The position numbers and the translations under genes were made by a program. 64,000 nt of DNA, from positions 4,528,001 through 4,592,000 of the forward strand of contig CP084613.1 of the NCBI GenBank assembly GCA_025917655.1. The letters run 5' to 3'. Position 1 is the stretch's first letter. Each line of letters opens with the position of its first letter. Shown here in pieces: positions 1 through 52,820 of the stretch. Source of the DNA: Chlorella sorokiniana. Taxonomy: Eukaryota > Chlorophyta > Trebouxiophyceae > Chlorellales > Chlorellaceae. A model generated the notes under the pieces. That model made no database searches. It was not told where the DNA came from and was given only the letters and a program-made list of their open reading frames with translations.

Positions 1-2999
1 CGCCCTGGTCACGCTGGGCGGCGCCGACGCGTTGCGAGGTGGGTGGCCGGGCCATGCGCCGTTTGTGAGTTTGCTGCCATGTGCCTGTGGAAGGGCCCTG
101 CCTGGAACAGGCGCTGTCCTGCCAGCTGTGCGGTGGGGCTGCCAGAGCTTGTCAGGAGCGGCTTGCTGGGTCCCTGAGCAGCAGCTGGCGCCGACACCTC
201 CCACGTTGCCTACAGCTCCCAACCGTCGACGCTGTCGCTCACGGGCTGTCCATCCCCCGCCTCCCTGCAAAGCCTTTCACGTTTTTGCGGTACCCCCTGC
301 CCCTCTACAGCGGTGGACCGTCCGAAGCTGCACGCCTTCCTCCTCCGCATGTGCGTCCCCCTGAGCGCGGCGGCGGCATGACCATGCACGAGGGTGCGGC
401 GACCCCTTCCACCTCCTCTGCCCCCTCGCATTTGCTGTGCTCTCCATTCGTGTGAGAGCTCCAGCGCGCTGCTCTCCGCACTGGTGCCTCTCTTGCCCCG
501 CTCGCTGGGTGGATGACTGTGGCGCCTCTCGCCCCCCTTTCCACCGCCACCATCACCCGCTCACCCCACCCACCCCCTTCTGCCTTTGGGCAGGCGGCGA
601 GGTGGACGTGCGCGGCTGCTACTGCGCCCTGGCCTCCTGCGAGATGTTGGGCCTGGACAAGGCGGCGGTGGCGGCCGCCTGCGGCATGATCGACTACATC
701 CGTCGCTGCCAGGTGAGGCCCCGCCGCTTCACAACCACCCTGTGATCCAAGCCGATGGCAGCCGCTCCACTGCCTCCCTGGTGTGGCTGCCGCGGGCGCG
801 TCTGCTGCCAAGGTTGCTTGACGACTGTGGGAGGGTTGCCTGGCGGGTGACGCGGCAGCGTCCAGCGGGTGTAAAGATGCCCAGCTGTGTCTGCCCGTTC
901 GTGCGACAGCACCCACTCGCCGTGACCCCCTCCCCCTACACCACCACATTCCACCACACACACACACACTCACTCCCCTCCTTCCCCAACCTCCCCACCA
1001 AACACCACCCCACCCATCCACCCACACCACAGTCTCACGAGGGCGGCATCGGCGGCGAGCCCTGGAACGAGGCCCACGGCGGCTACACCTTCTGCGGGCT
1101 GGCCGCCGCGCTGCTGGGCCAGGTGCGCGTCACGGCGGCGGCGGGGCGATATCGGGTCTGCACGAGGGAGGCAGCAGGGGGGGGTGCGGGGGCTGCTCTG
1201 TAAGGCACGCCGCATTGCAAGCCTTGGTGATGCACATGTCCTTTCCCTCACCCCCAAAAGCCTGGCACCGCAAACCTGGGCTGTGAGGTCCCTGAACACC
1301 ATCATCGTCTGCAAGCACCATTCATTTTCTATCTTTCTTTCCATGACCTTCTCCCCCCCATGACCTTCTCGCCCCCCTTTCCCTCCCCCAACCCCCGCAT
1401 GTAAACACAACCAGGCTCATGAGCTGGACCTGCCCCGCCTGCTGCGCTGGGCGGTGCGGTGCCAGGGCGCCGCCGAGGGCGGCTTCATGGGACGCACCAA
1501 CAAGCTGGTGGATGGCTGCTACTCGTTCTGGCAGGGTGGCGCGCTGCCGGTGCTGGCGGCGGCGCTCGCGCAGCAGGCGCAGCGTGGGGGCCGCGCGCAG
1601 GCAGGCCGCCGACACGCGGAGGCGGCAGGGCCTGGTCGCAGCGTGGGCGGCGACGCTGCTGAGGCTGCGGCGGCTGCGGCGAGGATCCTGGAGCAGCTGG
1701 CGCTGGAGGACGACGGCGAGGAGGCAGACGGGGAGGAAAGCGCGGGACGCGGCGCAGCAAGCAAGGGAAGCGCGAGCGGCGATGGAAGCAACGCCGAGTC
1801 GCTGCAGGTGTGGGTTGCGCGCCTGCCGCACCTGACGCCCGCGCAAGCGGCGGCGCGGCGGGCGGCGACGCTGCAGGGGGAGCTGGATGCCGCGGTGGAG
1901 GCTTCCCTGGAAGCTGAGGAGCGCTGGAAGGCAGCCGCTGGCAGGGCCGCGGGCGGGCCGCTGCAGCAGGAGGCGCTGGCGGCGCTGGAGAGGGCTGCGG
2001 AGCTGCAGCGCGCACTGGAGGCGGCCCAGGCGGCCGCAGCGGCGGCCAGCGGCGGCGCCGCCGCGCTGCTGGACGCGGCCACGGGCGGCGGCGTGGAGGA
2101 GGGGGCGCTCAGGCGGCCAGCGGCGCCGACCGCCTGCCGCTGCTTTACGACGCGGCGGCCCTGCAGCTCTGGCTCCTCAAGTGCTGCCAGGCGGTGAGAA
2201 GCTGCGGGGAAGGGGCCACGCGTGCCATGCCCACGCGCTGCCCATCCTGGCAAAGGGGCCCTTGCCGCCGTACCTGCGCTGACGGGCACAGCCCCCTGCC
2301 GCCAGAGCCTCTGAGCTGCCAACCCTGACTCAGCCACCCGATCCGACCCCGCTGCCGCCTCCTGTCCCTGCAAAGGCGCCGCGCGCGGCGGCATGCGAGA
2401 CAAGCCGGGCAAGCCACCCGACTACTACCACACATGCTACTGCCTCAGGCGCGTCCGCCACCACAGCTGGAGCAGCTGCAGCCTGTTAAAGCGTGGCTTC
2501 CCCAAAGGGGTCGATACAGGACTTGCGAGTGATGTTTCGCGCCTGAGGCGGGAGCTGTCTCCAGCCAGCTCCTGCAGCTCTCCAGCATGCCTGCCAGAGC
2601 CGCCAGCCTCCGGTGTGCTCAGCTGCTCCGAAGCTGCACTCTGCCCCTGCCCCCCTCGCCCTTGCAGCGGCCTGAGCAGCAGCCAGCACTACAGCGGCGT
2701 AATGCTGGGCGGGACGCAGGTGCGGACCTGAACAGCCGCATTTGCTGCGTGCGAGGCGGCCGTTGCGTCGTTGGAACAGGCCCCACTGCCCATTTACCCC
2801 CACCCCACCCTGTCCAGTGGGCGCACCCTGACCTGCCTCGCTCCTCTGCCTGCCGCCCCCGCCCCCTGCTGTGCAGAACCTGCTGGCGAAAGCAGACCCG
2901 CTCTGCAACGTTGTGGCCAGCAAGCTGCACGAGGCTCGCAGCTTCTTCCGCCAGCTGGACGGCGCTGGGCCGCAGGCTGCGGCTGCGGCAGAGCTCTGA
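1..2999 (+). CDS. FNTB: Protein farnesyltransferase beta subunit (5' truncated by window)
   Basis: This is the catalytic beta subunit that, with the alpha subunit, attaches farnesyl to CaaX-box proteins in the cytosol. Exons seen: 1-38, about 312-392, 594-712 (GGEVDVRG), 1033-1122 (GGIGGEPWNEAHGGYTFCG), 1415 onward (NKLVDGCYSFWQ), about 2113-2193 (LPLLYDAAALQLWLLKCC), 2376 onward (KPPDYYHTCYCL), about 2664-2720 and 2877-2999, ending in TGA. The zinc ligands Asp and Cys (in LVDGCYSFW) and His (in YYHTCYC) are all present. The first exons lie before the window. Frame is lost at a C5 run at 357-361 inside a conserved block, as if one C were missing. The Ala-rich stretch 1808-2112 is open but may be an intron: GTGTGG at 1808 and CAG at 2110-2112 restore the conserved frame. 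The family call is firm; several exon edges are not. Confidence 0.9.
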
Positions 3000-3495
3000 T
3001 GGCAGCCGCCTGGGGTGGTGGGTGACCGTGCGCCCAGCTGTATGATGTGACTGCGTCTGGCCTCAGCACGGCCAAGCGGTCACTTCATCAACATACTTCA
3101 GGCTCGGCGTTGCTGTTGTGTTGATTGGATGGCATCTTACGTTTGAGAGAGAGGGCCGCGCAACAGGCGGCACGCATGAAATGGATAAGGAAAGCGAGGC
3201 AAACAGAGCGGAAGAGTCATGGGCAGGGTTCGTCTCAGCCGTGGGCGCCGCCGGGACGAGAGCAAAAAGCACGTGCAGTGATCTCATCAAAACTGAGCGG
3301 ATCGAAGGGTAAGCGAAAGGGGTGGGGGTTTCTATTCGTGGTTTCTCACCACATCTGCTCTCAACCTGGGGCAGCGGCGACGGAAGCTTGCAGCGGTTCA
3401 CATCACCCCAGGGCCCCGTCTGCGGCTGCTGCCAGGCCGCGGCAGGGCTCTTGCTCAGGCAGACGCGCATCATACGGCGCATCGAATCATCGGCC
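3000..3495. other. Convergent intergenic region
   Basis: This stretch lies between the stop codons of the farnesyltransferase gene (+) and the photodecarboxylase gene (-), so it holds both 3' untranslated regions. I see no conserved coding segment, RNA gene or repeat in it. Confidence 0.6.
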
Positions 3496-8029
<4,534 letters not shown>

Positions 8030-9051
8030 CGGATTGCAGATGGCAAATGCAAGCTGCCGAAAGCGCCTGCAGGCTAGCGCACACGCAGGATAAAGTCGCT
8101 ATCCCGGGTGCCCGTTGTCGGTCCTCGCCCGACGCCGCCTGCTACTGACGACCTCGCAACTGCACGCTCTCGCAATGCCTCCGATGGCGCAAATTCGCAA
8201 TCCACAGTCGCCGTACTGCTGCTGTGTACTTGCTGTGGTGGGCAACCCTGGCGTGCCCGAGTGGGGCCTCAAAGTTCATGTTTGGATTTGGAGTATTCTC
8301 AGGCATGTTGAAATCATGTCGGAGAGCATAGGATGGTCTTAGAGCCGCCATGTGTTCTTGCACCATTGCCACGTCCACCAATCCCCCTGTAAGGCTGGGA
8401 GCACTCCTGTGCTTGGTGCTGCTGGCTGCGGCCACCACCAGCACTTCTCTGCGCTTTTTGCGGATAAGAGGCGGCGTTCAAGGACACTCTACCATCCTCT
8501 GTAGCTCAAGCCAATTTCGTGTGCCGCCCACCCGCCATTATAGCTTAGACCACGCAAGAAATACAACAATTATATCGAAGTGATAAATTAAAGATGGGCA
8601 AAAGCGCTATGCACCCGCCTTAAGCGGACTCACTGAACGAGTTTGCTCGTGTGCAGGTCAGAACTTCCCTGTGTATGCATGGAACGCTTGGAGTATTCAC
8701 ATTGATGCATAGAAAGATGAGGTGCGCATGAAAACTACAAACTCAGTCTAGGTTCTGACTTGGCCTGCCTGCTGTGGCTCCCTGCTGGCCTTAGCTGCAT
8801 GTTATGTTGGTGCTTGCTGCATGCGTTGGCATCAGGTTCGCTGCAAACACTGCCTCCTGCCTCACTCATCGTGCCGCCGCTGCGTCACGGCTGGGTCTTG
8901 GGCCGCCTGTGATGGGTTGCACCATTCCGCAGCACTGTGCCATCCAGGTTGCCTGGCACCGTCGGGCCCCGTACCTGCAACGCGCCCCGCATTAGATGAA
9001 TGAGCACGTCAGTGCCTCTCATTGCCGCCCGCCGCCAGGCACCTGTCCTAC
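8030..9051. other. Intergenic region upstream of FAP
   Basis: About 1 kb between the FAP start and the end of the transposase-like gene, both on the minus strand. It should hold the FAP promoter and 5' leader. The part from about 8270 to 8740 is clearly richer in A and T than the rest of the window. I see no coding exon or repeat. Confidence 0.5.
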
Positions 9052-11010
9052 TCATTGCCCCAATGCAGACCCAGGCCTGACCTTATTCACAGCCTTGCCC
9101 CTCTTCGCCAAGGTTGGCAGCTCATCGCAGCGGTCCTCAGGCGCCCCAGGTGGGTCCGCCTGGGGCCGCTTTCGGCGGTGCGGCAGCAGCGGCTTCACCA
9201 CTCTGTCCTCGGGGTTGCGTCCCGCCCTGCGGCGTGCCTGCTTGCCAGCTCGCACCTCAGTAGGCTGCAGCCCAGCAGCCAAGGCTACTTCTTTCGCCTC
9301 AGCCAGGAGGTCAGCTGAACGCTGCAGCAGCCCCTCCTGCGCCTTGCTGTCAGGCAGACCGGCGTAAATGCGCTGGAACTGGGCAGCGTCACTGCGCAGC
9401 TGCGCCATGCCAAAGACAGCACTGGTCCCTCGCACCCAGCCTCACCGCTGTATGAGCACGTGCAGGTCATGTCCCCCAAGACCACCATGGCGCTGCCGCT
9501 GTCGCTAGTCACACTCGCCCTGCCGCAGCTGCTGCCCTCCTCCTTGGCTACTGCCCCGCTGTTGACCAGGTGATCCACTATCCGCTGTATGCGCAGGCCC
9601 TGCTGCACCTGGTCGCTGCTGGCACGGCCCACCAGCTGCAAGGCACGCTGCTGCATGTGCCTGGAGTTCGTCGTGCCCGCCCTGGCAGCTGAGCATATGC
9701 TCCCTCACCACAAGGGCGTACAAAGGGAAGCCGTATTTGTTGGTGCCGTAGGTTGCATCCAGGAACACCAGGCTGCGCCCAAACTCGAACAGCATGCGCT
9801 GCTGGAAGGGAGTCTGCAGGATGAGGATAAGCGGCTGCGCGCCGACCTGCTGGGTTGCAGCCCTGTATGGTTGGAAGAAGGCCACATGGCCACCGCGCTG
9901 CTTGTACTCCTCCACGTGGACGGGAATGGCCTTGGCGTCGCTGGTGAGCCCGTAGCCCTGCTGCCGCTTGTACTGCTTGGCCAGCGCATACACCTGATGC
10001 AGGCTGATGCTGGCCCTGGCATTGCTGGCCTGCTGCAGGGCGCTGCTGCCCGTACCCAGCAACCCCTGCCGCAGCGCCATGTCGTTCAGCTCGCAGCACA
10101 CCTGCATGGGCTTCACCCCCAACTTGAGCAGCGTGCTGCCCATGGCTTGCAGAGTTGGGTGCATCCTCAGGCGCGCCATGTCTTCGGCACTGCCAGGGTT
10201 GTGAAACTGGTGCGTCTCCAGCTGTGTGACGGCCACGGTGCCATTGCCGTTATGCTTGAACTGGATGGAATAGGGGCAGCAGCAATCGGATGCTCGGGCG
10301 CACACGTATTTGATGCACCAGCTGCCTGCTTTCACTTTCTCCAGGGCTGCCAGAAGCCCTTCCCGCTCCTCCGCCAGCAGGGCCTGTCCTGAAGCACTGG
10401 TGAGCTTGGGGATGGTGCCTGCTGAGGTGGGGGCAGGGCGCAGAGAAGGCTGGGCAGCATGCATGGCAGCGCCTCATGCTGTTGTGAGCAATGTAGCAGT
10501 CTTGCCTTGGAGGTAGTGCAGGCTGCGCAGCTCATCGTCCAACAAGTCAGCGAGGCTGTCGCTGCCAGTCAGCATCTGGTACCAGAGCTCGCACACTGGC
10601 CGCTCCCGACGCAGGTCAACGGGCACATCTCCATCGTGCTGCAAGCCATGCAGATAGGAAGGGATCTCGTCTGCTGGCAAGCTGCCCTCAAGCAGCTTGG
10701 GCTGGAATACTGTGAGGATGGGAGCGTCAGCTGGTGGCGGCTCCATGGCATGCAGGTAGTCAGGGGGAATGACTGCCGTGCCTCCTTGCCATCCAGCAGG
10801 CAGGTCCAGCTCTGGCCAGTCTGAAGCACATGCGAGAGGTGCTGATGGGCGCCGCTGGCGCGAACCCGCCCATTGTCCCCAGCCAGCGGCACAACTCCAG
10901 TTGCACTGCCCACCAGCAATGCCTTCGTGCAAATGATGTTGATTAATGCATTGATTCACAAAGAATAAGGAGTGAAAAACAAAACCGCCTTGCAGCGCAC
11001 GACTGCTCAT
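9052..11010 (-). mobile_element. Mutator-like (MULE) transposase relic or domesticated derivative
   Basis: The longest open stretch (9505-10464) has a Cys/His cluster (CARASDCCCPYSIQF, then THQFH) resembling the WRKY/GCM1-type zinc finger at the front of MULE transposases. It is followed by a helical region and LVFLDATYGTNKYGFPLYAL, which matches the first catalytic Asp block of the MULE transposase domain. Downstream (9285-9656) a CTCSYSG segment may be the start of a SWIM zinc finger. Further open segments lie at 9052-9435 and 10474-11010. The frames do not join cleanly, so this is either a decayed copy or a gene with introns and base-call errors. No terminal inverted repeats or target-site duplication were recognised. 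A domesticated FAR1-like regulator is the main alternative. Confidence 0.55.
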
Positions 11011-11190
11011 TGCGCCTGATGCAGCCCCACAGCATCAGCGCCGCTGCCGCAGCCAGCACAGCCGCTGCAGCACCCAGCATCCCTAACACGCCAGCGCAGG
11101 CATGAATGGCCGACGAGGGCGCCTGCTGGGGCGAGGGGGCTCGCTGCAGGCATGCCAGTTGCCTGCTTGAGCGGAGCGGGACCAGGGATG

Positions 11191-12976
11191 TCATACACGC
11201 GACCGCCGTTGTCTGTGGTCGTCAGACCCCATCCGCATGGGGCCCCCATCGCCGCCCTTCTCTGGCTTGCACATATCGTAGTAATCCTCGGGGCAGGGCG
11301 CCGTGGGTGGTAGCACCGGCGAGTCACAGACGGCGGGGAACGTGGCTGCCACGTCAGCGTCGCCACACATGGCGGCAAAGCCGCTCGCTGCGCACTCGTG
11401 CATGGTGGGCATGGCTGGAAGGGGTGGGGCGGAGTGGGGTGGGGGGGGGGGCTTGAGGTTATGCAAGTTGATGTCATCAGTCAACAGCGGTTTGTGCTGA
11501 GAACAGCAGCTCCCCATACGAAAGGGGTGACCAGGCGCTATGCATGCACGTGGGCCGTGCGGGGTGGGGGGCAGCGGGCAGGGTGTGCAGCAGAGCTGCG
11601 TGGCTGAGCACTGCCGGTGCAGCGGGCGGGCATGGGGCGAGCGTCATTCGTTATTATGTCATCATTTTTTCAGCAGAAAGGGGAACCCAGCTCCCTCACC
11701 TGTGCACATGCTGGCCAGCACCGTAAGCGGGTCGGGGCAGGCGGCAAAGGTGTGCCCCGCGCCAGCGCAGTAGCATTCCATGCAGCCGTCCATGCAATGC
11801 GTGTAGCAACTAAGTTTGGGGGAGGGGGTGGGGGGTGCGGGGGGGGGGGGGCCGCACGCGCAGGATCTCGCAGGATGAAGGGCAGAGGGGCCCGTCGGCA
11901 CCGTGAAGCCCGCTGGCCTGCCCCAGCCATTAACAGCTTGGCAGTGGCAGGGAGCACGGGGGCAGCCAGGCAGGGGCTGCCTGTCCTCCCAAGGAGCGCG
12001 GCGAGAATGAGACCCTCCATCAGCATGCCGGTGCTGCACAGCGCTCACAGAGCGTCCAAAGCGTCCTTTGTGCCAAACGTTGTCAGGCCGCCAGGGATGG
12101 GGCCGGGGCAGGCGCACTGCTCCACCGCTGTGGTGTTGGAGCAGAGGGCAAGGTAGGCCTCGCAGCCCTTCATCTGCAGGCAGGGTTGGGCGGCGGGAAC
12201 GGCGGCGAGGCTGGGTGGAAGGCATCGGCGTTTGTTCGTGGATACAGGTTGGACCTTTCGCTAAGCGAGCGCCGGTCTGGCGTGTTGAGAAGACGAAGCA
12301 GGGGATCAGCAGTAGTGAGCAGAAGACGAAATGGCGGTTGGAGCGGAGCCCGTCGCCGCTCACTCGCGGCATGTCGGTGCAGGCGGCGCCCACGAGGGAT
12401 GGCAGCGCGCAGTAGGGCCCCGAGGCGGTGCCGTTGGCGCACTGCCCCCACAGGGTGCACCCCACCATGAAGGGCATGGCGGAGCACAGCTGCGACAGGT
12501 CGTCCTCCCAGTCTGCAGCGCCCGGAGGGAAAGAGCGGCAAGTCCAAGCCAAAGCAAAACGCATATTGTCGTAATTCTGTGCCAGCGGAGTGTTCATGAG
12601 TGTCGTGAACTAGCAAGAAGTGTGCAGATAAGCGGCACAAGGCCGGCCAAGGCGGGCGGCGCTCGAGCCACCTCTGTCGCTGCGCTTGAAGCCGGCGCAT
12701 GCGGCGGAGGCAGGGTCTGCATAGCACGGCCCGGTCATGTTGCGGCTGCCGCTTAACGAAACATGTGCTGCTGCCATGAACCCTGCAAGCTCAAGGGGGC
12801 TTGGGTGACAAACCAGAGATGATCAGCGCGTACCGCCGCCGCCCCTGCAGCAGTTGCAGCCAGCAAGGACTCGTGCGCACGCTGGAATCGTGCGCACCTC
12901 TTTGCTCCAACCTTCCCATTGCGTGGGCATGCCCCATCGCGCTGCCAAGCAGCAGCAGGGCAGCGAAGACATACAT
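11191..12976 (-). CDS. Secreted Cys-Met motif protein, CTR-like copper binding (copy B)
   Basis: A secreted or surface-bound copper-binding protein is inferred. The ATG at 12976 opens a hydrophobic signal peptide (MYVFAALLLLGSAMGHAHA). Exons then encode NMTGPCYADPASAACAGF (about 12673-12790), LCSAMPFMVGCTLWGQC (about 12370-12515), MKGCEAYLALCSNTTAVEQC (about 12050-12174), THCMDGCMECYC (about 11700-11810) and HECAASGFAAMCGDADV (about 11191-11415). LCSAMPFMVGCTLWGQC fits CxxMxxMxxC-x5-C, the motif described for Chlamydomonas CTR copper transporters. No three-helix CTR permease is visible. The model stops at 11191, but another frame at about 11010-11130 encodes a strongly hydrophobic segment (GVLGMLGAAAAVLAAAAAL) ending in a basic tail, so a further exon could add a membrane anchor. 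It is a tandem paralogue of the next gene, with the same exon plan. Confidence 0.7.
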
Positions 12977-13497
12977 TGCTCTCAAGCTCGCGTGAAGGCC
13001 AGTCGAACACCCCAAACGACCGGGAGATGGATCTAGTCGATTCAATGAAGGGTTGGCCCAGCCGAGTTACCGGGCTTCGAAGTTCCGATGACCGCAGCGC
13101 GTCGCAGCAGGCGACACGGGGATGCTCCCACTGAACCCACTTTCTGGCTGTCTGGCCGCACTGGTTCAAGGACCTTAAAACCGTTACCTGACCCATCAAA
13201 TCTCAATCCTCCTCTCCCCTCTTCTTAACCCATCAAATCTCAATTCTGAGAGGAAGGAGTCAGCTTGCAGGACCCGCCGCTCTTTGCCTCCCGCAACCCC
13301 CTTTGTGACGAGTTCGATGGCTATGGCGTCGCATTGTTAATTCACAACCAATGAGTGCATGCTGGGAATCAAGGGGAGGATGATGAAACCAATGCTGCTG
13401 CGCTGAAATCAAAGAATCCAGCAAGAGCCCTTCTCAGGGCCAATGCGACTCCGCCGTGTGGGGGCTCTCCAGTCAGCTGCTTCATGTGAAAGCCAGT
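12977..13497. other. Intergenic region between the two Cys-Met genes
   Basis: This holds the 3' end of copy A and the promoter of copy B, both minus strand. A 16-base direct repeat (CCCATCAAATCTCAAT) occurs at about 13192-13207 and again at about 13229-13244. Nothing coding is seen. Confidence 0.5.
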
Positions 13498-15405
13498 TCA
13501 GCAGTTGTCCGGCACAACCGGCGGCTCTGAGCAGACGAGGCCAAAGTTGGCCGCCACATCGGGGTCGGCACACATAGCAGTAAATCCGGTGCTCTGGCAT
13601 TCGGGCATGGGCATCTCTGCAGGGAGTGGGGGTGAGGTGGGATTAAAGGATGGTGTGAGGACGGCGGCAGTGGGGGCCAGGTTGGGTGGAGCGGAGCCGC
13701 CCATTTACACAGCTGCTGCCCACTGACGGTGCAGCGAGAGGCGGAGTGTCATGCTGTGGCCAACGACACAGCAGCCACAGCAGGAAGCGTCTGCCCGGGC
13801 AGACCGGTCAGGGGCCGCCGCCCGCATGCCAAGGAGCCCAGTCAAGGCGGCCCAGCAGGGAAAGCGCAGCGCTGTGCAGGGCGCCACGGTGCTGCTGCAG
13901 TGATACTATCACTGCAGCCGTACAGCGGTACGCACCGTAGCACATGCGAGCCAGCACCATGAGCGGCTCCGTGCAGGTGCGCCAGCTGGCGGAGGCGCCG
14001 CACACGTCGCAGCCCGGCATGCAGTGCGTGCCGCAGATGCCCTGCGGGACAGGGCAGTACAAGGAGAAAAAGGTGAGAGCTGGGGCCCCGGTGGGAGGGG
14101 GATGCCCAAAGGGCACCGGGGTGCGGCAGGGCAGCAGAGGTCTGCGACACACAGCTGGGAAACCCAGTGTGCAACAAGCTGCTGCGGGACTGACGGGGCG
14201 CACAAGCGGGCGGCAAGGGGGCTTGAACAAAGCGGGTGCGCACCTCAATGCCGTCGCGAACGGTGAAGGTGGTAACCGCGTCCGGGACCGGCCCCGGAGA
14301 CAGGCACTGCTCCACCGCCGTGGTGTTGGAGCACAGCGCGTTGTATGCCTCGCAGCCCTTCATCTGCACGTGAGGAGAGCGGAAAGGGGGCGCGGCAGGT
14401 GGAGCAGGGAGGCAGCCAGCCCAGCACGGGCGAAATGGCGACAAAGCAACGTGGCGCCCCCACACAGGCTCCTCACCAGCGGCATGTCGGCGCAGGTGGC
14501 GCCCACGAGGGAGGGCAGCGCGCAGTAGGGGCCCGAGGCGGTGCCGTTGATGCACTGCTCCCACAAGGTGCACCCCACCATGAAGGGCATGGCGGCGCAC
14601 AGCTGCGACAGGTCGTCCTCCCAGTCTGCAGCGCCCGGGGGGGCGGGCAAAACGGGCGCAGGGGCATCAGTGCAGCTCAGGAGCGGCAAACGGGCGCAGG
14701 CTGGCAGGGAAGCGTGGGCATGCACGGGAGGATGCACGCCGCTTGGGGCGCACACAGGCTCCGCGCCTCACCAGCATCAGTGCGGTTGAAGCCAGCGCAG
14801 GCCGCATCGGAGGGGTTGGCGTAGCAGGGGTCGTCCATGTTCACGCTGCCCGCCGGAACGCCGCTACCAGCCGGCATGTCCATGCCGTCGCTGGCTGCTA
14901 CCGCCGTCGTCGGGCGCCGCCGCCCATGCTGCTGTGGTCGTGGCCCATGCTGCTGTGGTCGTGGCCCATGCTGCTGTGGTCGTGGCCCATGGCGCTGTGG
15001 TCGTGATCCATGCTGCTGTGGTCGTGGCCCATGCTGCTGTGGTCGTGGCCCATGGCGCTGTGGTCGTGCTCCTCTGCGTAACGGGAAAGCAGGGGCGAGC
15101 AGACACATGAGCGGCGGCGGCGGCGGCAGCCACGCCCAGGGGCCTGTGTACCCGCGAGTTGCACCAGGACTCAAACCAGCTCGCGGTTCGAGTCGTGTGT
15201 GTCCAAGATTTATGGCCCAAAGCGGTGTGCGCTCGGTTTACACAACACCTCTGTGAAGCTGGGGGCGGGTGTACCAGCATGCCACAGCCGCGCGCCTGTG
15301 CGCTAAGAGCTTACGATGCAGGTGTCTTCTCGCCATCGCCGGTCCTGAGAGGCTAATGAGCAGCAGCAGCGCCGCAAAGGCCGCAGCAGACCCACTCCTG
15401 AGCAT
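13498..15405 (-). CDS. Secreted His/Met-rich Cys-Met motif protein, CTR-like copper binding (copy A)
   Basis: An extracellular copper-binding role is inferred. ATG at 15405 begins a signal peptide (MLRSGSAAAFAALLLLISL). The next exon carries seven heptads of the form HDHS(S/A)M(G/D), typical of copper-transporter N-termini. Then come NMDDPCYANPSDAACAGF, LCAAMPFMVGCTLWEQC (exactly CxxMxxMxxC-x5-C), MKGCEAYNALCSNTTAVEQC, CGTHCMPGCDVCG and PECQSTGFTAMCADPDV, ending DNC-stop at 13498. There is no membrane segment after the signal peptide and no CTR permease core, so the protein looks soluble, as reported for Chlamydomonas CTR3. Exon order and sequence parallel copy B, which lacks the His-Met repeat. 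The many Cys pairs suggest a disulfide-rich extracellular fold. Copper is inferred from motifs; another soft metal is possible. Confidence 0.78.
14925..15071 (-). repeat. 21-bp in-frame tandem repeat encoding HDHSSMG heptads
   Basis: Seven 21-base units in the second exon of the copy A Cys-Met gene. Each encodes a heptad with two His, one or two Ser and one Met; units differ by Ser/Ala and Gly/Asp changes. Being a multiple of three, copy number can change without breaking frame. Confidence 0.9.
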
Positions 15406-15692
15406 GATGCTACCGCCTCACTGTTTCAAACGACAGCACTCAATGATCAGGGATATTGTCGATTAATGACAGATGCTTGATGGGTTTTGCGGGGTGTACC
15501 ACCGAGTAAGATAGGCCGGCAGAACCAGCCCAGCGCAGCGCAGCGAGGCAGCAGCTGCTAGCGCCAGCGGCAGGTGGCTTGCACGTACGTCTCAAGGCGG
15601 CAGCATACATGAGGGTACAAGTAGCATACATGGCGCAGTGCACGGAGCCTGCTGCAAGCAATGGGCATGCAATCACTAGCAGGCAAACACGG

Positions 15693-18600
15693 TCACGCCG
15701 TGGCGCGGCCCGGGGCGCGTTGCCGCCGCGTGCTGCCGCCACGCCGCCGCTCTCAGCCGCGTGCAGCAGGCCGGACTCATACACGTTCTCCAGCAGGGCG
15801 GAGGGGTCTGCCTCGTTAACGTCGAAACACTCGCCTTCCGTGGGCGTCCTGCACGGCGTTTCAAGCCGCGGTCAGGGTCAGAAGGAACCGCAGACCGCGG
15901 AGCACTGCTGCGCTGCACCTGCACCCCCATGCAGCCCCAGCAGCCGCCCACCACACTGCAAGAGCCTGCCGTCCCGCCCTCCCGGCGGATGGCGTCTGGC
16001 AAGCCCACCTGCCGCGCTGCTGCGCCTGCGGCTTGGCGTAGTCGTGAGGGCGAGGCCGCACCCACCGCTGCGGCGCGAGAGGGGGCACGGTGCAGGCTGG
16101 GTCACTTATAATACAGTCACCCACCAGAAGCCGGCACCTCAGCTGGAAGCTGGCCCACACGGTGTGCCCCTGGGTTCATGCTGCAATGGGCTGCGGCCGC
16201 CCGTTTCCGGGCCAGCACAACTGGGCTGCCACTCCTCGCCTGAGTCAGCAGCACCGCCAGCGGGGAGGAAAGTGTGATGAGCGCCACTATCGTCCACAGC
16301 GCCCGCCCGTCGCACTCGTACCCTCCCGGTGCGGCGCTTGTGCTGCCGCCGCCGCCACCGCCGAGGCCTCGCCCCGCCAGCGCTGACAGCAAGCGGCGGC
16401 CAGGGCTGTCGGCCGCGCCAGCCTCGGTGCACTGCCCGTGGTCCGGGCAGTAGGCTTGCAGCAGCGCACCGCTGATCATCCCCGTTGGCAGCATCGCGGC
16501 AAACAGCGGCGCGGAGGCGAGGGCGGTGAAGATGCCCTCGCGGCCGTGTGGCGCCACGCCCATCGAGTAGTCGTCTGCGGCAGCGGCAGCGTAGATTCAG
16601 CCTTGGGAATACAGCATACAAGCAACACTCTTGAGCAGGCGGAGCCTGAAGTTTCACGTTTCAAGGTTCAAACACTGTCAGGTCTTGAGCACAGCGCGGC
16701 AGGCAGGCCTGCATGCGTGCGGCTGGCGGGCTGCAGGCAGCGCAGGCGCGGGGAGCCGGCCGGCTCGCAGCGCGTGCGGCTGGCCCCCCGCCGCCGCCGC
16801 CACTCACACCAGCGCGGTGACCAGATGGCCTCCCGAGGGACAGCGTGGCGACGAAGAGGGCGGTGGACCACTCTGTGGGCAGCAGCCGGGGGCAAATCGC
16901 AGATCAGGGACCCCTTGAGGATGAAAATAAGACGAGCTACGGGAAAGGTGCAATGCGCGGCGAGGATGCCCCACACGGTTCAGCTCCGATCGAGCTGCTT
17001 GCCAGAGACCCGCTCCTTCAAGGCTGCCTGCAGCTGCTGCCACGCCAGGCCATCGCCGCCCCCGCCCCGCCCCCGCCCAAAGGAGCTGGCTGCCCACCGC
17101 CAGCCCGTTTGTGCCCCAGCCAAGCGCTGGCTGCACGCCAGCCCAGCCCTGCCCCACCCGTGTCGAACGCCACGATCCAAAAGGGCGACAGCGCCGAGAT
17201 GTAGCCTCCCCAGTGGATGACGTCAAAGTGCTGGAACTCTGCGGCAGCAGGATCAGCGGCACGGCGGCCTTGGCGGAAGTGTGCGAGGGAGAGCGCGCTG
17301 CGTCTGTGTTTGCGCTTCAGCTGCTCTTGTGTTCAAGCAGCTTGCCGAGTGGCGATGTAGTATCGGCAGCTGGCTGGGTCCGTGCCAGGCCAAGCATTGA
17401 AAAGAGCGACGGTAGCGGCCAATAGACACGAGTAACAGGGCTGGCGGTGTTGGGCGGGCGCCGCGCACCTGTCAGGGCAGCGCCAAAGATGGGCACCAGC
17501 AGGATGATCATGGCGGGGCTGCGGAGGGAGGGGAACAGGTCGGCAGCGCCGCAAACTGTAAGAAAGTAAAGTGGAGGTAGTAAGCTGGCAGGGCAGCAGT
17601 GCAGTGCACAGGACGGCATGGTCCTGCCCCTGTTCCCCAGGAAAACGCCCTCCACACCCTCAGTCTCCCTGTATAACGTGTTCACTGTGCCCATTAAAAC
17701 CGCCGAAGCGGTGCTCACTTGATGGAGTAGATGAGGCCCACGGGCGAGGAGCAGCCAAAGGCGCGCAGCTGGAACTTAGGCAGCTGCGTGAATGGGGGCG
17801 GGATGGCGGATGGCGCGTGGGGGCGACGGCGAGAAGGGGCAGGCGGCTGGCCGCGTGGCAGCCGGCCCGCCAGCATTTGACCCTGAGCCCTCGGCGTCGC
17901 CTGCCTACCTTGCCCACACACAAGGCCCACCCGCCCAGCCTTTCCTAAGCCGCCCCACAAGCAGGGGCAGCGCCTCACCGTGGCATCCAGGTGGCGGAAC
18001 ACCGACTTCAGGTTGACTGCGGTACACGGGGAGGAAAGCATGGCAGCAGGGGTGTGGGCAGGTGGGGCGGGGAGGCAGCCAGGGAGCAACAAAGCCACAG
18101 CTCTGAGCCCCCCGTGCCAGCAGCGGAGCCGGGTGAATGGCGGTTAAGGCACAAAGCTGCCGGGCATGCGATGGCTGGGCAGCAGCTGCCACCGGGTTCC
18201 TGCCAACCCACCTGTGAAGATGCACATGGCCATGAACCTGCGACAGGAGGAACGGTTCAGAGGTGGGAGCGAAGTGGAAGCAGGCCAGAATTAGAAGAGA
18301 CCCGGGAGGCAGCTGCAGGCAGGCTGGGCCCGGCAGCCAGCTGGACTGAAATCCAGGCCATTGGCCATCCTGCTGCACGCGCGGCGCAGGCAAGCCGAGG
18401 CGCGCAAAAGGACTGAGCATCTGCAGCAGAAGCAGCCCACCCACCTCCAGAAACCCTTGGAGGCCAGCACCTCCCGCGCCCCCTCCAGCATGCTGCCTGG
18501 AGGCCGCACCGGCTGTGGGGCGCTCCCCAGCCCGCCATCAGCCGGCTCAGGCCCGGGTTCCGACATGGCCTGGCTGGCGCCGCCGCGGTGGCGCGCGGCT

Positions 18601-20946
18601 TGGCCGCCAGGCTGCTTCCCGCTGCTGCTGGGGCCCAGCAGCGGCGCCTCGGGCGAGGGAGCCGGCAGCTCCAGCTCGGCGGAGGAGGCGGAGCGGTGGC
18701 TGTGCACCGAGCCCTCGGGAGATCGGCGCTGTCGGCGAGCTTGGGCGCGGCTGCCGGCTGCGCCTGCTCGTTCAACAGGAAGGAAACCGCCAGGCCGGCC
18801 AGCGACGTCACGCAGCCTGCAAGCGCCAGGGAGCAGGGGGTCATGGACCCAAGAGCAGAGAGCGAGGCTGGCTGGCGCGGTGATGCGGCGGGGCGTGGAT
18901 CCCCGCGATCTTCAGCATGTGCTTTGCGAGCACGCAGAGTCGCCCCACAGACACCACGACTCCTCGAAGAATCATCAGTGCCGATGAAAATACGCGGACC
19001 AAGCAGCGGCCCGCAAGGGGCCCCTGCCTCGCCCTCACGCCCACCTGAAGCCAGGAAGAGGCGCCCGCCGTTGTTCAGCAGGGCGTGGTCCGAAAGGGAG
19101 GGGATGCGGAAGCCTCTCTTCAGACCTATGCGGAAGACATCCATCAGCATGCCCTGCAAGCCAAAGTGGCGCACTTCAAGCGACGCTGCTTCACTGCTCA
19201 AACCGCTGGAAACGCCCAGGCAGCTCAGCCAATCACCAGCTGGCCAGTGCCAGCAGGCGCCTTCCTGAGCCAGCCCCACGCCGCACTTAACCTTTCAACA
19301 GGCCCAGCCAGACCAGAGCATGCAGGCACGCACGCTCCACGCGCTCGCCGCTCTCACCTGCGTCAGCGCCGCCGCGTTCATGAGGGTGTAGAAGAGCGCA
19401 AAGGCGAAGCCGCGGTTGCGTTCATGCGTGTACCGCTTCACCCCGATCGTCATCACGGGGATGCCCAGCGCCCCCGCCACCGTGTTGGGCCCCAGCAGCA
19501 TGGCCAGCATCATGACCCTGAGAGGCCAGGCAGGGGAGGGTTGGGTTGGGGGGTTGGGGGAGGGAGGCGGCGATGTGGGGTCGGCCGCTGTGGTGCTGCC
19601 AGCCGCCGGGGCCGGCCGATGCATGGCCAAGGCAGGAGACGAAGGCGCACGATGCCGCTGGTTGGGGCTGCCGCCGTGGTAGGCGACCCAGGGTGCCGTG
19701 CTTGCCGCCTGCCCAGCTGTGTCTTAGGGCTGGCACCTCCCCACACGCATCCTCATACCCACCCACCCACCCTCCCACTCTCCCGCACCCACCAAGACCC
19801 GCCACCCACCTGGACTGCGTGGCAGCCATCACCAGGCGGCTGCAGCAGTTGAGCAGGAAGCTGAGCACCAAAGAGCGGCGGACGCCTGGGGGGGCGGGGG
19901 CGCGGGGGGAGGGCGGGCGGGCGCATGAAGGAAAAGGGCGCGGCACAGCTGGGCGTTGGGCACAGCTCTGCGCTCGGCGGCATGGCGGGTGCCACACAGG
20001 CGTGCAGCACTGCGACGCGCCCTGTCCCCGTCTCGTTGCGTTGAATTCATGGTTTGCAACAAAGCGATACAAGTGGACATGGCCAGCGCAAGTGGAACGG
20101 GGCTGGCATGCGTCGGCCCTCTCACCCAGGAAGTCGATGGCGCCCCCAGAAGGAAGCCATAGGCGGTGAGGAGGGAGCCCCACACCCCGTACCAGAAACC
20201 TGCAGCGACGGGGGCGCGGCCAGCCACACACGCTGCATGTTTCCTCCTGTTGAGTGACTGCAGGCCACATCTGTGCTTGCCTCATGTCAGCAGGCAGCCG
20301 CGCAGCAACAGTGGCAGTGACAGCGCGCAGTGGCAGTGGCAGTGACACGAGGGAGCTTGGGCTGGGGCAGCGGCCGGCTGCGACGGCGGCAGCGCCCGCG
20401 CCGCCCTGCGCACGGCCACACCCCACCTGCCCGGTAGTCTGACACCCCAAACTCTTCCGTCAGCAGCAGCGTGAGCGAGCGGGAGAGGCTGAAGTAGTTG
20501 TACGAGTCCAGCACCTTTAAGAGCAGCGGGGTGGCGGGGTCAGCGAGGGAGGCAGGGGTGGCGGCAGGTTGTGTGCCGGAGGCTGACCAGTCCCAAGGGG
20601 TTGCTGGTGGAGAGCTTTAATTGGATGCGCAAAGAGCAGCCCGCAGGGGCAGGGGCGGCGGGAAACGGCACGCAAAGCGGGAGGTACGCCCAATGCAGGT
20701 GCATCTATGCGTTCAAGGAAAAGCCTCACCTTGAGGATGAACATGATGTAGAGGTCCCTGCGTGGGCGCGTGGGGAAGGCCGCAAGCTTCTTTGGGCGCA
20801 GCTCAAACAGCGGCAATCGAGCGCCAAGCGCGCGCGACGAACATGGAGAACAGTGCAGCAGCTCACCTGGGGCTGCCGGCTAGGCTGGTGAACCCTGCCT
20901 TGGTCTGCTCCCAGGCTGCCCTGCAGGCGGACCTGAGGCCCCGCAT
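15693..20946 (-). CDS. Major facilitator superfamily transporter, substrate unknown
   Basis: A polytopic membrane carrier in many short exons. From the 5' end: WEQTKAGFTSLAGSP (start ATG at 20946), AAFPTRPRRDLYIMFILK, SLTLLLTEEFGVSDYRAG, FWYGVWGSLLTAYGFLL, VRRSLVLSFLLNCCSRLVMA, MLLGPNTVAGALGIPVMTIG with YTHERNRGFAFALFYTLMNA, a variable cytosolic loop (about 18490-18720), VNLKSVFRHLDAT, FGCSSPVGLIYSI, PAMIILLVPIFGAALTG, QHFDVIHWGGYISALSPFW, ATLSLGEAIWSPRWYDYSM, and GREGIFTALASAPLFAAML. The GxxxDRxGxRR-like loop 2-3 (DFLGVRRSL) supports MFS membership; the layout recalls a little-studied protist MFS group distantly like POT carriers. Frame slips at C5 20143-20147 inside the conserved loop. The stop is uncertain: 15693 or, without a base correction, 15440. 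Confidence 0.75.
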
Positions 20947-30143: not shown

Positions 30144-32238
<2,095 letters not shown>

Positions 32239-37715: not shown

Positions 37716-40700
37716 ATGTTGGGGCCAGCAGCGAAGCTAGGACCCAAGCTCGTCCTCCTCGCCGCCCTGCTACTGTGTACCGCTGCTCCGTCACTTGCCT
37801 TGGATGATAAAGGTTAGGGCCGAGGGTGCCCGGACGACCAGCCACAACCAGGCTGGTGTGCCCGCGCCTCTGGGAGGGGCACGAAGGCGCTGTCGGCCTG
37901 TTCGCCTCGTTTCAAACAGTCTTTGGGGTGTTGAAGGGTCCGGATGGCCACAGCTCTGCGCCCTGCGAGTTACTTGAACCATTACCAGCTTCGGCGGCTG
38001 CCGCTCCGTGTGCGTGGCACCAGGCGGCTCCAGCATCACCGGCGCGACGGCAGCGCGCTGGCGCCTCTGCTGCGCCCTTGCTGCGGCCCTTGCACGCGCT
38101 GGAGCCTGGACTAGGCCTGCCAGGGGGCTTCAGGCCCTCCCTTCCATCTCCCACCCCGCCAGCTACCGCGTTGGCTCCCAGCAACCCCGCCTTCTGCGCC
38201 CCCCCCGCAGGCGGCCGCCGCACGCTGCTCTCCAGGCCCGACGGGCGCCAGCCGTGGCGCAACACCCCCGGGAACATGACAGTGGTCATCCACTTCAACC
38301 AACTGGGGCAGCTGGCGGTGCGGCAGACCAGCACCGGGCTGCAGCTGGCTGCCAAGTTCCTTGCCATGGTGGCCGGCGCGCAGCGGTCCGCCGTGCAGCG
38401 CTACCCCCGCCAGCCCGCCCTGCAGATCGCGGCTGCAGGCAAGCCCACTGGGAGGCGCGCCCTGCTTGCAGGCCTCGCTGCCGTGTCGGCTGCCATGCGG
38501 CTGCCATGCAGGCCGTGCTGTGTGTGGCTTTCGTGCAGAGCGAGCAGGGCCCCGGCCTGCCTGTGAAGCCAAGGCTGCATGAGGGATCAGCTGGCACTTG
38601 AGCGGTGTGTGGCTGAACACGGGGCCGCCTCTCCCAGGCCTGCTCATCGCGCGATGCCCCGCAACCCCCTTCCCCCTTCACCCTCTCACAAAACTGCAGC
38701 CTACGCCGGGCATGGCGTGCTCACCCGCCTCTTCCCGCTCCAGTCGGCAACCTTTGACGCCGTCATGCGCACCTACACCGACGGGCTGACCAACGTGCAG
38801 CGCGCAATCGTGGCCCGCACCGCGCAGCAGCTGGCACAGAGAATCGTGGCTGACAGGTGCGGCGCTGCTCGTGCCCAAGCCGCCGCCGCTGGCTGTCGCG
38901 CGCCGCCGCCGCCGTCCGCTGCGCGTGCCGCCGCCGTCGCCGCTGTTGCAGCTGCTTCGTTTGTGCTGTCTGACACCGCAGCCGCCTCCCCCTTACCCTC
39001 CCTCCCCCGCGACCTCATTCCTGGTGTTTCTCCCTCACCCAGCGCCTTGGCCCCAACTTGCCCACACATACCTCAATTCGCCCCCGCCTCCCGCCCGCAG
39101 CCTCACCGACGGCCTTTCCTCCTGGGCTGACTGGTACTACCCCCGATGGCACTGAAGGTCCTGGACAGTACCAATTCACCTCCCCCACCCAGACGTTTGC
39201 GCTGCTGCCGCAGCTGGCCCGCACCCGGCCCCTCGTCATTCCGGGACCCGAGCGGGTGAGCCACGCTGCCCTTCCAGCCGGCCGCCGCTCCTGCTCTGCC
39301 AGCGGCCGGCTTCTGCTGCACGCTGCCCGCCGCTTCCTGCTCTGCCAGCGGCCGGCTTCTGCTGCACGCTACCCGCCGCTTCCTGCTCTGCCAGCGGCCG
39401 GCTTCTGCTGCACGCTGCTCGCCGCCTCCTGCTCTGCCAGCGGCCGGCTTCTGCTGCACGCTGCCCGCCGCCTCCTGCTCTGCCAGCGGCCGGCTTCTGC
39501 TGCACGCTGCCCGCCGCCTCCTGCTCTGCCAGCGGCCGGCTTCTGCTGCACGCTGCCCGCCGCTTCCTGCTCTGCCAGCGGCCGGCTTCTGCTGCACGCT
39601 GCCCGCCGCTTCCTGCTCTGCCAGCCAGCGGCCGGCTTCTGCTGCACGCTGCCCGCCGCTTCCTGCTCTGCCAGCGGCCGGCTTCTGCTGCACGCTGCCC
39701 GCCGCTTCCTGCTCTGCCAGCGGCCAGCTTCTGCTGCACGCTGCCTGCCTGACGGGTGCCCCCTGCACACCCACCGATAGAAAACGTTCCCTGTGCCCGC
39801 CTGCAGTTTGACAGGGGCGGCCCGTTTGCGCTCGGGTCAGCAAACTTCACGGCCGAGCTGGAGGAGGTGCGCACTCAGGGCGGCGACGGCCTGGCACCCC
39901 CGACAACGTGCAGACCGCTCAGTTTTGGTTCAACGGCCCCAGTGAGTGTGCTGCTGCTGCCTGCGTGCTGCCGCCTGCTGGGGGCCTCGGCGGCGGCAGC
40001 TGCGCGGCATGCGTGGAAATTTCCAGGGTGGGGAATCCTAGCCGCCGCTTCCCCATCTTTGATCCCCAGCCAATTTGCTTCCCCCCTCACCCTTCAAACA
40101 AATTCAAACTAACAAAAACACACACGCCAACACCCACCCGTGTCCTCACCCAAGCCACCTGTCCCCCCGCTCACACCCGCACACTCCCTGTGCCGGCCCC
40201 ACCCCCTTGCAGACACCGCCTCCTCAGCGGGCCAGTGGAGCGACATCGCCATGTCGCTCTTCCCGCAAAACACCACCGCGTTCGAGGCGGCCGACCTGCT
40301 GTACCGCCTCAATGCCGCCATGTTTGACGCCTCGGTGGTGTGCTGGCACGCCAAGTACAAGTACAATTTCTGGCGGCCCATCACGGCGCTCAGGTGGGCT
40401 GGGGGGACAGAGTGAGATGGGCAGACCGCCTGTGACCTACGCACTTCTGGGGGCGGCGTGCTGCGTGGGGGGCCAGCATGCTGCACAGCGACTCTGTGGC
40501 GCCTTTGAAGCCCTGTCGCGCCTTTGCCACCCACCTGCTACCCCCAGCGGTGCGGGCCGTCCCAGATCCCATCCCCAGCGCGCTCGCATGGCCTCCACTC
40601 TGCGGGCTGGCCTGCTTCTCTTGAAGCCCCCGACCCTGGCCTCCCCCCCTTTCCCGACGTGAAGGTTCCAGGGCAACCAGGGCTGGAGCCCGGTGCTGCC

Positions 40701-48064: not shown

Positions 48065-48764
48065 AGCCCGTAGCCCCTTCCACAGCTTCACCCAGCTGGC
48101 CAGTGGCAGTCGCACCCAAGCACAATCTTCAGTGCCTGACCTCATGCTGCATCCCTTTGGCCACCACAAGTGCCGCCTGGCCTGCTCGTGTTCGCACCCA
48201 CCGCCAGTCTGCCCGCGTCCTCCACGCACCAGGAGCGGGATCTGCCCCCTCAGCTTTCTTCACCTCCCTCATGCATGTGTGGCTGTTCTGTTCGGGTGCT
48301 CTAGGATCTACCCGATGCCTTGTGTGCCCATGCCAAGCCACGCGTCTTGCGGGGTAGTCTGTCCTGCATTTGCGCAACTTCCCCAGCATGTAACCTCCTG
48401 ATTTGGAGCTGTCTGTTGTGGATTTTTCAGCTACTGGCAGAGGAAGTTTCAACAAGAGTGGGGATACGGGGCCCGGTCAACAAGTAGTGGCAAGTAAGCA
48501 AAAGGGGCAGCTGGGGGACGTGGGAGAGAGGCCGCGCAAGCAATGGCGCGGACATCCAATTCCATTTGGGCAGCTGGGAAGATGTTTCTAAGTTTAGGGG
48601 TGGGAGCGCGTTGTGTTTGATTGACTGCTTGAGGGCAGAGCGGGGGCTGCAAGCCGCAGTGTCACACGGGGAATCGTCAGGCCGGCTGCTGCAGTGCCGC
48701 AAGCTGCACGGCTTTGGAGCCCAGGTGCTGACAGGCGGCTGGGGACGCGCCCTCCACTCGTAGC
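48065..48764. other. Convergent 3' region (DCAF11 / PHO4 copy 1)
   Basis: 700 bases between converging genes. No coding or structural feature recognised. Confidence 0.5.
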
Positions 48765-51700: not shown

Positions 51701-52820
51701 AGAGCTCACATGTACAGCTCCGGCTTATCCGTGTACGCCTTTGGGTCAGCAATCTTGCCACGAATCGTGTCTGTCACGCCGGCACCCAGGAGCACGGCGC
51801 CACCAAACTCGCAGACTGCCGCTACCAGAATTGCTTGCTTCATGGTGAGGGCCTTTGAGCCTGCAAAGGCAGTTGGGCATCGACCACATGTCCTGCAGTG
51901 ACTGCAATGCAGCTGCAAAATCCAGTTGCAAAAGATCAGGAGTTGCACTCAGATTGGGCAGCGCATTCGGTGGCAACAGCATACGAATACACACCGACTG
52001 AGCTGCCGAACGCGTTGGCGACATCATTCTGTATGGAAGAGGGGAGGAGAAGGGTGGGATGTGAGCGGGTGAGGACAGGCATGAATGGCGGAATGTGGCA
52101 GAACACAGGCTGCAACAGGTGCAGGCCACGGCTGACAGTTACGGAGACAGGCTGAGAAAGCAAACTGTGGGAATGTCTGGACTGCAGGTCCTTACCGCGC
52201 CGATGCCTGCGAAGAACAATAGAGCAAACAGGGTTGTGACGGGGCAGGCATTGAATTAAGGAGGTCAAGCGCAACAGCAGGACATGCTTGAAGGCCAATC
52301 ATGAGCAGGCAGGTGGCCCTACTCACCGTAGGCAACGAAGATGGAGAGCACAATGGCGCAGACAAAGATCCAGGTGAACTCCTGTGCAGTGAAGCAGGGC
52401 ACAGGTGAGGGTGTCGGGGCTGAGTCAGGGCAGAGCGGGCTGCCAGGATGGCAACTAGACGAATGGCAAAAGCAGGGAATTTTCAGCATAAAACGACGGC
52501 GAATGATAAACTGCGCCGGCCGTGGAGCTGTGCCAAAGCAAAACCCGAGCATACTGGCAATCTGCCATGCCATTCATACCGTGGCGTTGGCAGACGTCAC
52601 ACGGCACCACCAGGGTTCACCGTTGAGAAAACAGCGCGTGCATGGGGCTGAGCGAGCGCGCGGCGCAAGAAAACCCGGAACAACACAAGAAACCCTCTCT
52701 ATGCATGGCCGAGCGCCGCTTGCAGGTGCAGTCGGACCCGTGCAACATCACAACAGCAAGCTAATTTTAAGAGGCGGGGAAAATGGCGGCTCAGGCCGCA
52801 GACACTCACGAGTACACCAT
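48765..52820 (-). CDS. PHO4-family sodium/phosphate symporter, copy 1
   Basis: A plasma-membrane phosphate importer of the PiT/PHO4 family (PTB in Chlamydomonas). ATG at 52820 opens an 11-base exon (MVYS). Then come FTWIFVCAIVLSIFVAYG, NDVANAFGSSVG, KALTMKQAILVAAVCEFGGA, ELPVSTTHSITGAVIGMSMI, SIGAAILFLFTRHAVLRR, VYVGCYYIIQKGPKL, a charged central loop with GADKP-like and GHEERTP segments, then the second half repeat: HGSNDVANSIGPFAGIYA, LPLSTTHCLVGAVTGVG and NWLLLVKFFCGWVATLVVAA. It ends TFTADA-stop at 48765. Both PHO4 signatures (NDVANAFG, NDVANSIG) and both STTH motifs are intact. The exon 1/2 join has one C fewer than copy 2 (acceptor near 52382), so splicing or base calling differs there. 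Copy 2 is nearly identical, introns included. Confidence 0.92.

What the first reader, a model, noticed from the sequence alone, without database searches (positions are those of the whole stretch)
11191..15405. Tandem pair of secreted Cys-Met proteins without a CTR permease: a possible extracellular copper-capture system
Both genes have a signal peptide and the exact CxxMxxMxxC-x5-C motif reported for Chlamydomonas CTR copper transporters, embedded in a large Cys-rich ectodomain with further conserved cysteine blocks. Neither has the three CTR membrane helices. Copy A adds seven His-Met heptads. Copy B may end in a single membrane anchor. Together they look like a soluble or wall-bound metal scavenger and a surface-tethered partner, split from the transporter itself.
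Basis: partly seen in the sequence, partly recalled or inferred. Interest (0 to 1): 0.8.

Follow-up and report, generated by a model that had tools for sequence, protein, structure and literature searches.

The report
Secreted algal copper-binding protein gene pair
A green alga carries two neighbouring genes for apparently secreted, cysteine- and methionine-rich proteins that look built to grab copper outside the cell, probably handing it to a transporter encoded elsewhere; the general idea has a precedent in a related alga.

Summary
Two tandem minus-strand genes encode apparently secreted Cys/Met-rich proteins, A (13498-15405) and B (10943-12976), identical at 124 of 184 aligned core residues, with 19 of 19 aligned A cysteines conserved. 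The CxxMxxMxxC motif is not single: spliced B has three exact copies, spliced A two exact and one shortened; the extra copies form only across splice junctions.

No CTR helix cluster was found nearby and neither protein matches Pfam. B probably ends in one membrane anchor, but its last junction is unsettled. A's seven HDHSxMx heptads follow a fair acceptor, but joining them to the core needs a poor 56-base intron or a one-base error; skipping them also keeps the frame.

Best reading: an extracellular copper-capture pair, like Chlamydomonas CTR3 (recalled as soluble), with functional parallels in FEA1 and Cbi1/Bim1. Metal binding, copper response and a partner transporter are untested. No homologue was found, but only viral and prokaryote contigs could be searched. 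The exon with the first motif looks gene-converted (dS 0.09 against 0.49 or more). New variant of a known kind.

The parts
15315..15405 (-). Copy A exon 1: start codon and likely signal peptide (MLRSGSAAAFAALLLLISLSGPAMA...)
   Evidence: Conceptual translation and hydropathy 1.77 over 19 residues; its donor is weak, 2.0, with 78 of 189 GT sites as high
14902..15073 (-). Copy A exon 2: seven HDHSxMx heptads (14922-15068)
   Evidence: In frame and phase with exon 1; acceptor scores 6.2, reached by 13 of 208 AG sites, itself included; the 56-base intron that would follow has weak sites (donor -2.2, acceptor 1.3)
14772..14845 (-). Copy A exon 3: start of Cys-rich core (VNMDDPCY...)
   Evidence: Homologous to B exon 2; could instead begin at 14894 (acceptor 2.9) and skip the heptads in frame
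14477..14625 (-). Copy A exon 4: first Cys-Met motif (14570-14599) and first half of the second
   Evidence: 93% DNA identity over 171 bases to B exon 3 and flanks
14244..14363 (-). Copy A exon 5: completes the second Cys-Met motif (CADMPL|MKGC)
13936..14041 (-). Copy A exon 6: further Cys block and start of third, shortened motif
13498..13616 (-). Copy A exon 7: completes shortened motif CYEMPMPEC; stop codon
12898..12976 (-). Copy B exon 1: start codon and likely signal peptide (MYVFAALLLLGSAMGHAHA...)
   Evidence: Reading of the sequence; no predictor run; below the 1.6 hydropathy cut-off over 19 residues
12672..12782 (-). Copy B exon 2: start of Cys-rich core
12364..12512 (-). Copy B exon 3: first Cys-Met motif (12457-12486) and first half of the second
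12049..12173 (-). Copy B exon 4: completes the second motif (CTDMPR|MKGC)
11700..11809 (-). Copy B exon 5: further Cys block and start of third motif
11197..11414 (-). Copy B exon 6: completes third motif CTAMPTMHEC; 3' end uncertain (11197, 11273 or 11317)
10943..11143 (-). Copy B exon 7: single hydrophobic anchor (11033-11089) and short tail; 5' end uncertain (11143, 11162, 11125 or 11122)
15496..15618 (.). Three GTAC cores upstream of copy A (15496, 15585, 15615), possible but weak copper-response elements
   Evidence: 3 in 250 bases; 2.7% of 250-base windows hold 3 or more; none in 500 bases upstream of B; the full TNCGTACAA consensus occurs nowhere in the window

Best explanation
The two genes arose by tandem duplication and encode extracellular copper-capture proteins. 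Each mature protein displays three related Cys-Met modules (C-x-x-M-P-x-M-x-x-C plus a following Cys; the third of A is one residue short) that would hold Cu(I) through thiol and thioether sulphurs. Copy A may add seven His-Met heptads able to bind Cu(II) and Cu(I). Copy A is soluble or wall-held; copy B is probably fixed in the plasma membrane by one C-terminal helix. Together they would concentrate copper next to the membrane and pass it to a CTR-type permease encoded elsewhere. Shown by sequence: homologous core exons with matching junctions, repeated motifs, no CTR helix cluster nearby, overall purifying selection. Inferred: secretion, metal binding, role in copper nutrition, hand-over.
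For: Three Cys-Met motifs in B and two plus one shortened in A, the second and third made across splice junctions shared by both copies. 19 of 19 aligned A cysteines and 10 of 11 core methionines conserved in B. dN 0.25 against dS 0.70 over 184 codons, with 68 third-position differences against 40 and 42 at the first and second. The three modules of B resemble one another more than shuffled ones (shuffle fraction 0.002 or less for each pair). Seven HDHSxMx heptads. One strongly hydrophobic segment in B. Three GTAC cores upstream of A; GTAC is the core bound by the copper regulators SPL7 and CRR1 (PMC4859090, passages). Extracellular metal capture has precedents: FEA1/FEA2 for iron (PMC3759009, passages) and Cbi1/Bim1 for copper (PMC9258870, abstract).
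Against: No direct evidence of metal binding or copper response. In an oxidising extracellular space many cysteines may be disulphide-bonded and unavailable. In A only the 1-2 module comparison is clear (1-3: 0.137; 2-3: 0.036) and its third motif is one residue short. Exon by exon, purifying selection is weak in two of five pairs (dN/dS about 0.78 for A6/B5 and 0.61 for A4/B3). GTAC cores are absent from 500 bases upstream of B, and the full TNCGTACAA consensus is absent from the window. Heptad inclusion and B's anchor rest on uncertain splice sites. No relative was found for comparison in the collections searched.
Confidence: 0.5

Rival explanations
1. Extracellular copper buffering or detoxification: the proteins bind surplus copper (or silver) at the wall and keep it out, rather than feeding uptake.
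For: His-Met heptads recall bacterial periplasmic copper-resistance proteins (recalled; a paper search on this returned only a listing that I did not read further); multiple sites suit storage. Nothing in the sequence tells uptake from buffering.
Against: The Cys-Met motif is reported in assimilatory CTRs (recalled from Page et al. 2009); GTAC cores upstream of A, though weak, fit induction by deficiency.
Confidence: 0.2
2. Disulphide-rich structural or adhesive extracellular proteins; the Cys-Met pattern is a fold signature rather than a metal site.
For: 20 and 28 cysteines, strict conservation of Cys; Pfam names no metal family.
Against: Met positions are also conserved, 10 of 11, and the His-Met heptads have no evident structural explanation.
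Confidence: 0.18
3. Truncated relics of CTR genes that lost their permease domain and are decaying.
For: No CTR helix cluster near either gene; a frame discontinuity between heptads and core in A; dN/dS near 0.8 in one exon pair.
Against: Both copies have open core exons with matching junctions, and overall dN/dS is about 0.36.
Confidence: 0.07

Closest known systems
Chlamydomonas reinhardtii CTR3 (Page et al. 2009; recalled, paper not held)
   Same: Cys-Met motif CxxMxxMxxC-x5/6-C; no CTR transmembrane domains; thought soluble; belongs to the copper-deficiency regulon (all recalled)
   Different: No sequence could be compared; the His-Met heptads, the single-helix partner and the tandem pair are not, to my recollection, described for CTR3
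Chlamydomonas CTR1 and CTR2 (assimilatory CTR transporters with Cys-Met ectodomain)
   Same: Cys-Met motif in an extracellular domain (recalled)
   Different: Neither protein here has the three CTR helices and neither matches Pfam
Chlamydomonas FEA1/FEA2
   Same: Soluble periplasmic proteins hypothesised to concentrate a metal near membrane transporters (PMC3759009, passages)
   Different: Iron rather than copper; homology not tested
Cryptococcus Cbi1/Bim1
   Same: Copper-binding protein proposed to shuttle copper from wall to Ctr1 (PMC9258870, abstract)
   Different: A histidine-brace LPMO-like fold by recollection, not a Cys-Met protein; homology not tested

Membership tests
CTR/COPT copper transporter (Pfam PF04145) | Match to the Pfam family | tested here: not met
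   0 Pfam families for A and B up to E 10; none of the 20 other ORFs of the window that I scanned matches it either
CTR/COPT copper transporter (Pfam PF04145) | Three transmembrane helices | tested here: not met
   None beyond the N-terminus in A, one in B; no three-helix group in minus-strand frames of 8000-15440 at a 1.6 cut-off; depends on the gene models
CTR/COPT copper transporter (Pfam PF04145) | MxxxM ... GxxxG in helices 2 and 3 | tested here: not met
   Six hits of a loose pattern (spacer 10-14) in the six frames of the window, the nearest at 19500 on the other strand, 4.1 kb from copy A
CrCTR3-like soluble Cys-Met protein | CxxMxxMxxC-x5/6-C (as recalled) | tested here: met
   One x5 and one x6 copy in each protein
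CrCTR3-like soluble Cys-Met protein | Sequence homology to CrCTR3 over the Cys-rich domain | not testable with these tools
   No algal protein set and no CrCTR3 sequence held; paper not held
CrCTR3-like soluble Cys-Met protein | Secreted | tested here: inconclusive
   Hydrophobic N-terminus in A; B's is short and below the cut-off; no predictor available
CrCTR3-like soluble Cys-Met protein | Induced by copper deficiency through CRR1/GTAC | tested here: inconclusive
   3 GTAC within 250 bases upstream of A, none within 500 of B; no full TNCGTACAA in the window; no expression data

The most novel reading that the evidence does not exclude
A two-part extracellular copper relay: a soluble carrier with His-Met heptads and Cys-Met modules loads copper in the wall and hands it to a membrane-tethered paralogue with the same three modules, which feeds a separate permease. 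Skipping of the heptad exon, which keeps the frame, could give the carrier a high- and a low-capacity form.
Probability: 0.18. Interest if true: 0.65.

Novelty: new variant of a known kind. Interest (0 to 1): 0.45.

Why it matters
How walled algae gather scarce copper before it reaches the permease is poorly known. A soluble and tethered pair sharing three Cys-Met modules would be a compact system in which to test whether the CTR ectodomain works as a separable copper collector.

Tried and rejected
Own-genome search was impossible. Relatives were sought with residues 1-254 of B and with the A/B alignment in viral and prokaryote contigs: 1 and 69 pattern matches in viral contigs and 31 and 137 in genome contigs, none confirmed. 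These collections are of viruses, bacteria and archaea, so this says little about absence in algae. A PDB search with B gave only chance matches, E 1.6 and 1.7. A DNA search of A's region against phages found nothing.

A hidden CTR domain was looked for on the minus strand. At a cut-off of 1.8 only B's anchor shows in 9000-11420 and nothing in 12977-13640. At 1.6 over 8000-15440, six further weak segments show (1.63-1.82), scattered in intron or downstream sequence. The loose MxxxM-GxxxG pattern hits lie elsewhere. A CTR gene outside the window cannot be excluded. Further copies of the ectodomain in the window: none, remaining tblastn matches have E 0.23 or worse.

My first choice for B's last intron (53 bases, 11197 to 11143) scored badly (donor -2.2, acceptor 3.6). 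Two others are in frame and score better: 11273 to 11162 (1.7 and 5.2; 110 bases) and 11317 to 11125 (2.1 and 4.7; 191 bases). All three lead to the same anchor; the unspliced reading stops just beyond 11191 without one. The site scores rest on nine assumed junctions and are rough: left-out donors score 1.1 to 9.4 and left-out acceptors -5.7 to 11.3.

Structure prediction of the Cys-Met exon pair (49 residues, two sequences) was poor, mean pLDDT 56.6, and is not used.

Paper searches: the motif string with copper (0 papers), Chlorella CTRs (31 papers, 10 listed) and a secreted algal copper-binding protein (37 papers, 10 listed); no listed title or abstract start describes such a pair. The library lacks most subscription journals. 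One Chlorella paper that mentions CTR1 means the ethylene-pathway kinase (PMC5915390, passages). A Naegleria copper paper gave nothing on the motif (PMC9035749, passages), nor did PMC9502191 and PMC8814560 beyond citing Page et al. (passages).
Full report
Organism and setting. The window is 57-69% GC in 4-kb blocks, its genes have introns, and no genome is held for it. The minus-strand gene at about 4-7.7 kb resembles a fatty acid photodecarboxylase: two fragments match the solved enzyme at E 3e-46 and 6e-50, and one aligned stretch is identical at 53 of 65 positions by my count from the printed alignment. That the solved enzyme is from Chlorella variabilis is recalled. A Chlorella-type green alga is therefore likely.

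Gene models. Reading all three minus-strand frames gives two seven-exon genes. Copy A: 276 residues, exons 15405-15315, 15073-14902, 14845-14772, 14625-14477, 14363-14244, 14041-13936, 13616-13498. Four core junctions of A can be compared with B: three fall at the same aligned residue with the same phase (1, 0 and 1), and the fourth lies within a residue or two with a shifted phase.

The motif is repeated. The six-frame window shows CxxMxxMxxC exactly twice, against 0.017 expected per window from 60 Markov simulations. After splicing, B has three exact copies (residues 73, 108, 190) and A two exact (122, 157) plus one shortened (236). The second and third of each protein are assembled across exon junctions, which is why a reader of genomic DNA saw only one. 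Their reappearance in both copies supports the splice models. The spacing to the next Cys is 5 in the first and 6 in the second. The three modules of B resemble each other beyond shuffled sequences (fractions 0.0005, 0.002 and 0 of 2000 shuffles); in A modules 1 and 2 do so clearly (0 of 2000), the others less (0.137 and 0.036). I chose the module boundaries by eye around the motif, so these fractions flatter the likeness.

Selection and history. Over 184 aligned core residues 124 are identical; all 19 aligned A cysteines (of 20) and 10 of 11 core methionines are kept. dN is 0.254 and dS 0.701. By exon pair, dS is 0.09 for the exon carrying the first motif and 0.49, 1.20, 1.34 and 2.82 (saturated) for the others; dN/dS is low in three pairs but about 0.61 and 0.78 in A4/B3 and A6/B5, on 48 and 32 codons. 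In DNA the first-motif exon plus a short stretch of flanking intron matches at 93% over 171 bases. Gene conversion of this exon is the simplest explanation; protein constraint alone would not hold down synonymous changes (inference).

Heptads. The seven HDHSxMx units lie in frame behind an acceptor scoring 6.2; 13 of 208 AG sites in 10940-15420 score that high, this one included. The donor of A's first exon is weak (2.0; 78 of 189 GT sites score as high). The link from heptads to core is the weak point of A. The frame runs into a stop at 14900 unless a 56-base intron (donor -2.2, acceptor 1.3) is removed, or one base is missing in the assembly. Skipping the heptads by joining exon 1 to 14894 (acceptor 2.9) also keeps the frame, with the same entry phase as in B. 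I think the heptads are coding because they make metal-binding sense in that frame, but this is inference.

Membrane. A has no hydrophobic stretch beyond the N-terminus; B has one, followed by a basic tail. In all six frames of the window 13 segments reach 2.25, B's own included; two lie in the phosphate-transporter region and its copy, and two are antisense to the heptads. By my arithmetic that is about 0.009 expected in a single 279-base frame. Several in-frame splice choices reach this segment; the unspliced reading gives a soluble protein. The tail of about 25 residues after the helix speaks against a GPI signal (inference).

Regulation. Three GTAC cores lie within 250 bases upstream of A; 2.7% of 250-base windows hold three or more. 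B has none in 500 bases. GTAC is the core bound by CRR1/SPL7, within TNCGTACAA (PMC4859090, passages), but that full consensus occurs nowhere in the window on either strand. This is weak evidence.

Families. No Pfam family for A or B, no PDB relative of B, no relative in viral or prokaryote contigs. The closest known kind is Chlamydomonas CTR3. The held papers I looked at show that CTR1-3 group together among CTR proteins (PMC3103425, passages) and that CTR3 protein or transcript is measured and listed as a copper transporter (PMC11094752, passages; PMC3248568, passages). That CTR3 lacks the helices and may be soluble is recalled from the abstract of Page et al. 2009, which is not held; against it, PMC3103425 says in general that all COPT/Ctr proteins have three putative transmembrane regions. 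Functional parallels are FEA1/FEA2 (PMC3759009, passages) and Cbi1/Bim1 (PMC9258870, abstract).

Verdict. The pair is a new variant of a known kind: a CTR3-like Cys-Met protein duplicated in tandem, with heptads probably added in one copy and a single anchor probably in the other. By the tests run here it is not a CTR transporter.

Noticed in passing
48741-52382, 54036-57716 and 63297-64000: Repeated region holding a PHO4-type phosphate transporter (Pfam matches in the first copy): 88% identical over 3.7 kb, with a third partial copy (93-94% over about 700 bases) cut by the window end.
   Followed up: partly
3832-7717, minus strand: Gene closely similar to the solved fatty acid photodecarboxylase, in several exons; the C-terminal Pfam match at 3832-4356 is weak (E 0.046).
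   Followed up: partly
9508-10473, minus strand: MULE/ZSWIM-like transposase remnant directly downstream of copy B; Pfam matches are below the curated cut-offs.
   Followed up: no
12359-12529 and 14472-14642: The exon with the first Cys-Met motif looks gene-converted between the two copies (dS 0.09 against 0.49 or more in the other exon pairs).
   Followed up: yes
39282-39749: Direct repeat array with a period of about 92 bases, units about 95% alike.
   Followed up: no
15443-19723, minus strand: Upstream neighbour of copy A has several hydrophobic exon-like frames and may be a multi-helix transporter; no Pfam match to the five pieces tested.
   Followed up: partly
30697-31566, plus strand: Ras-family small GTPase exon; a prenyltransferase-repeat exon lies at 1364-2194 plus strand.
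   Followed up: no
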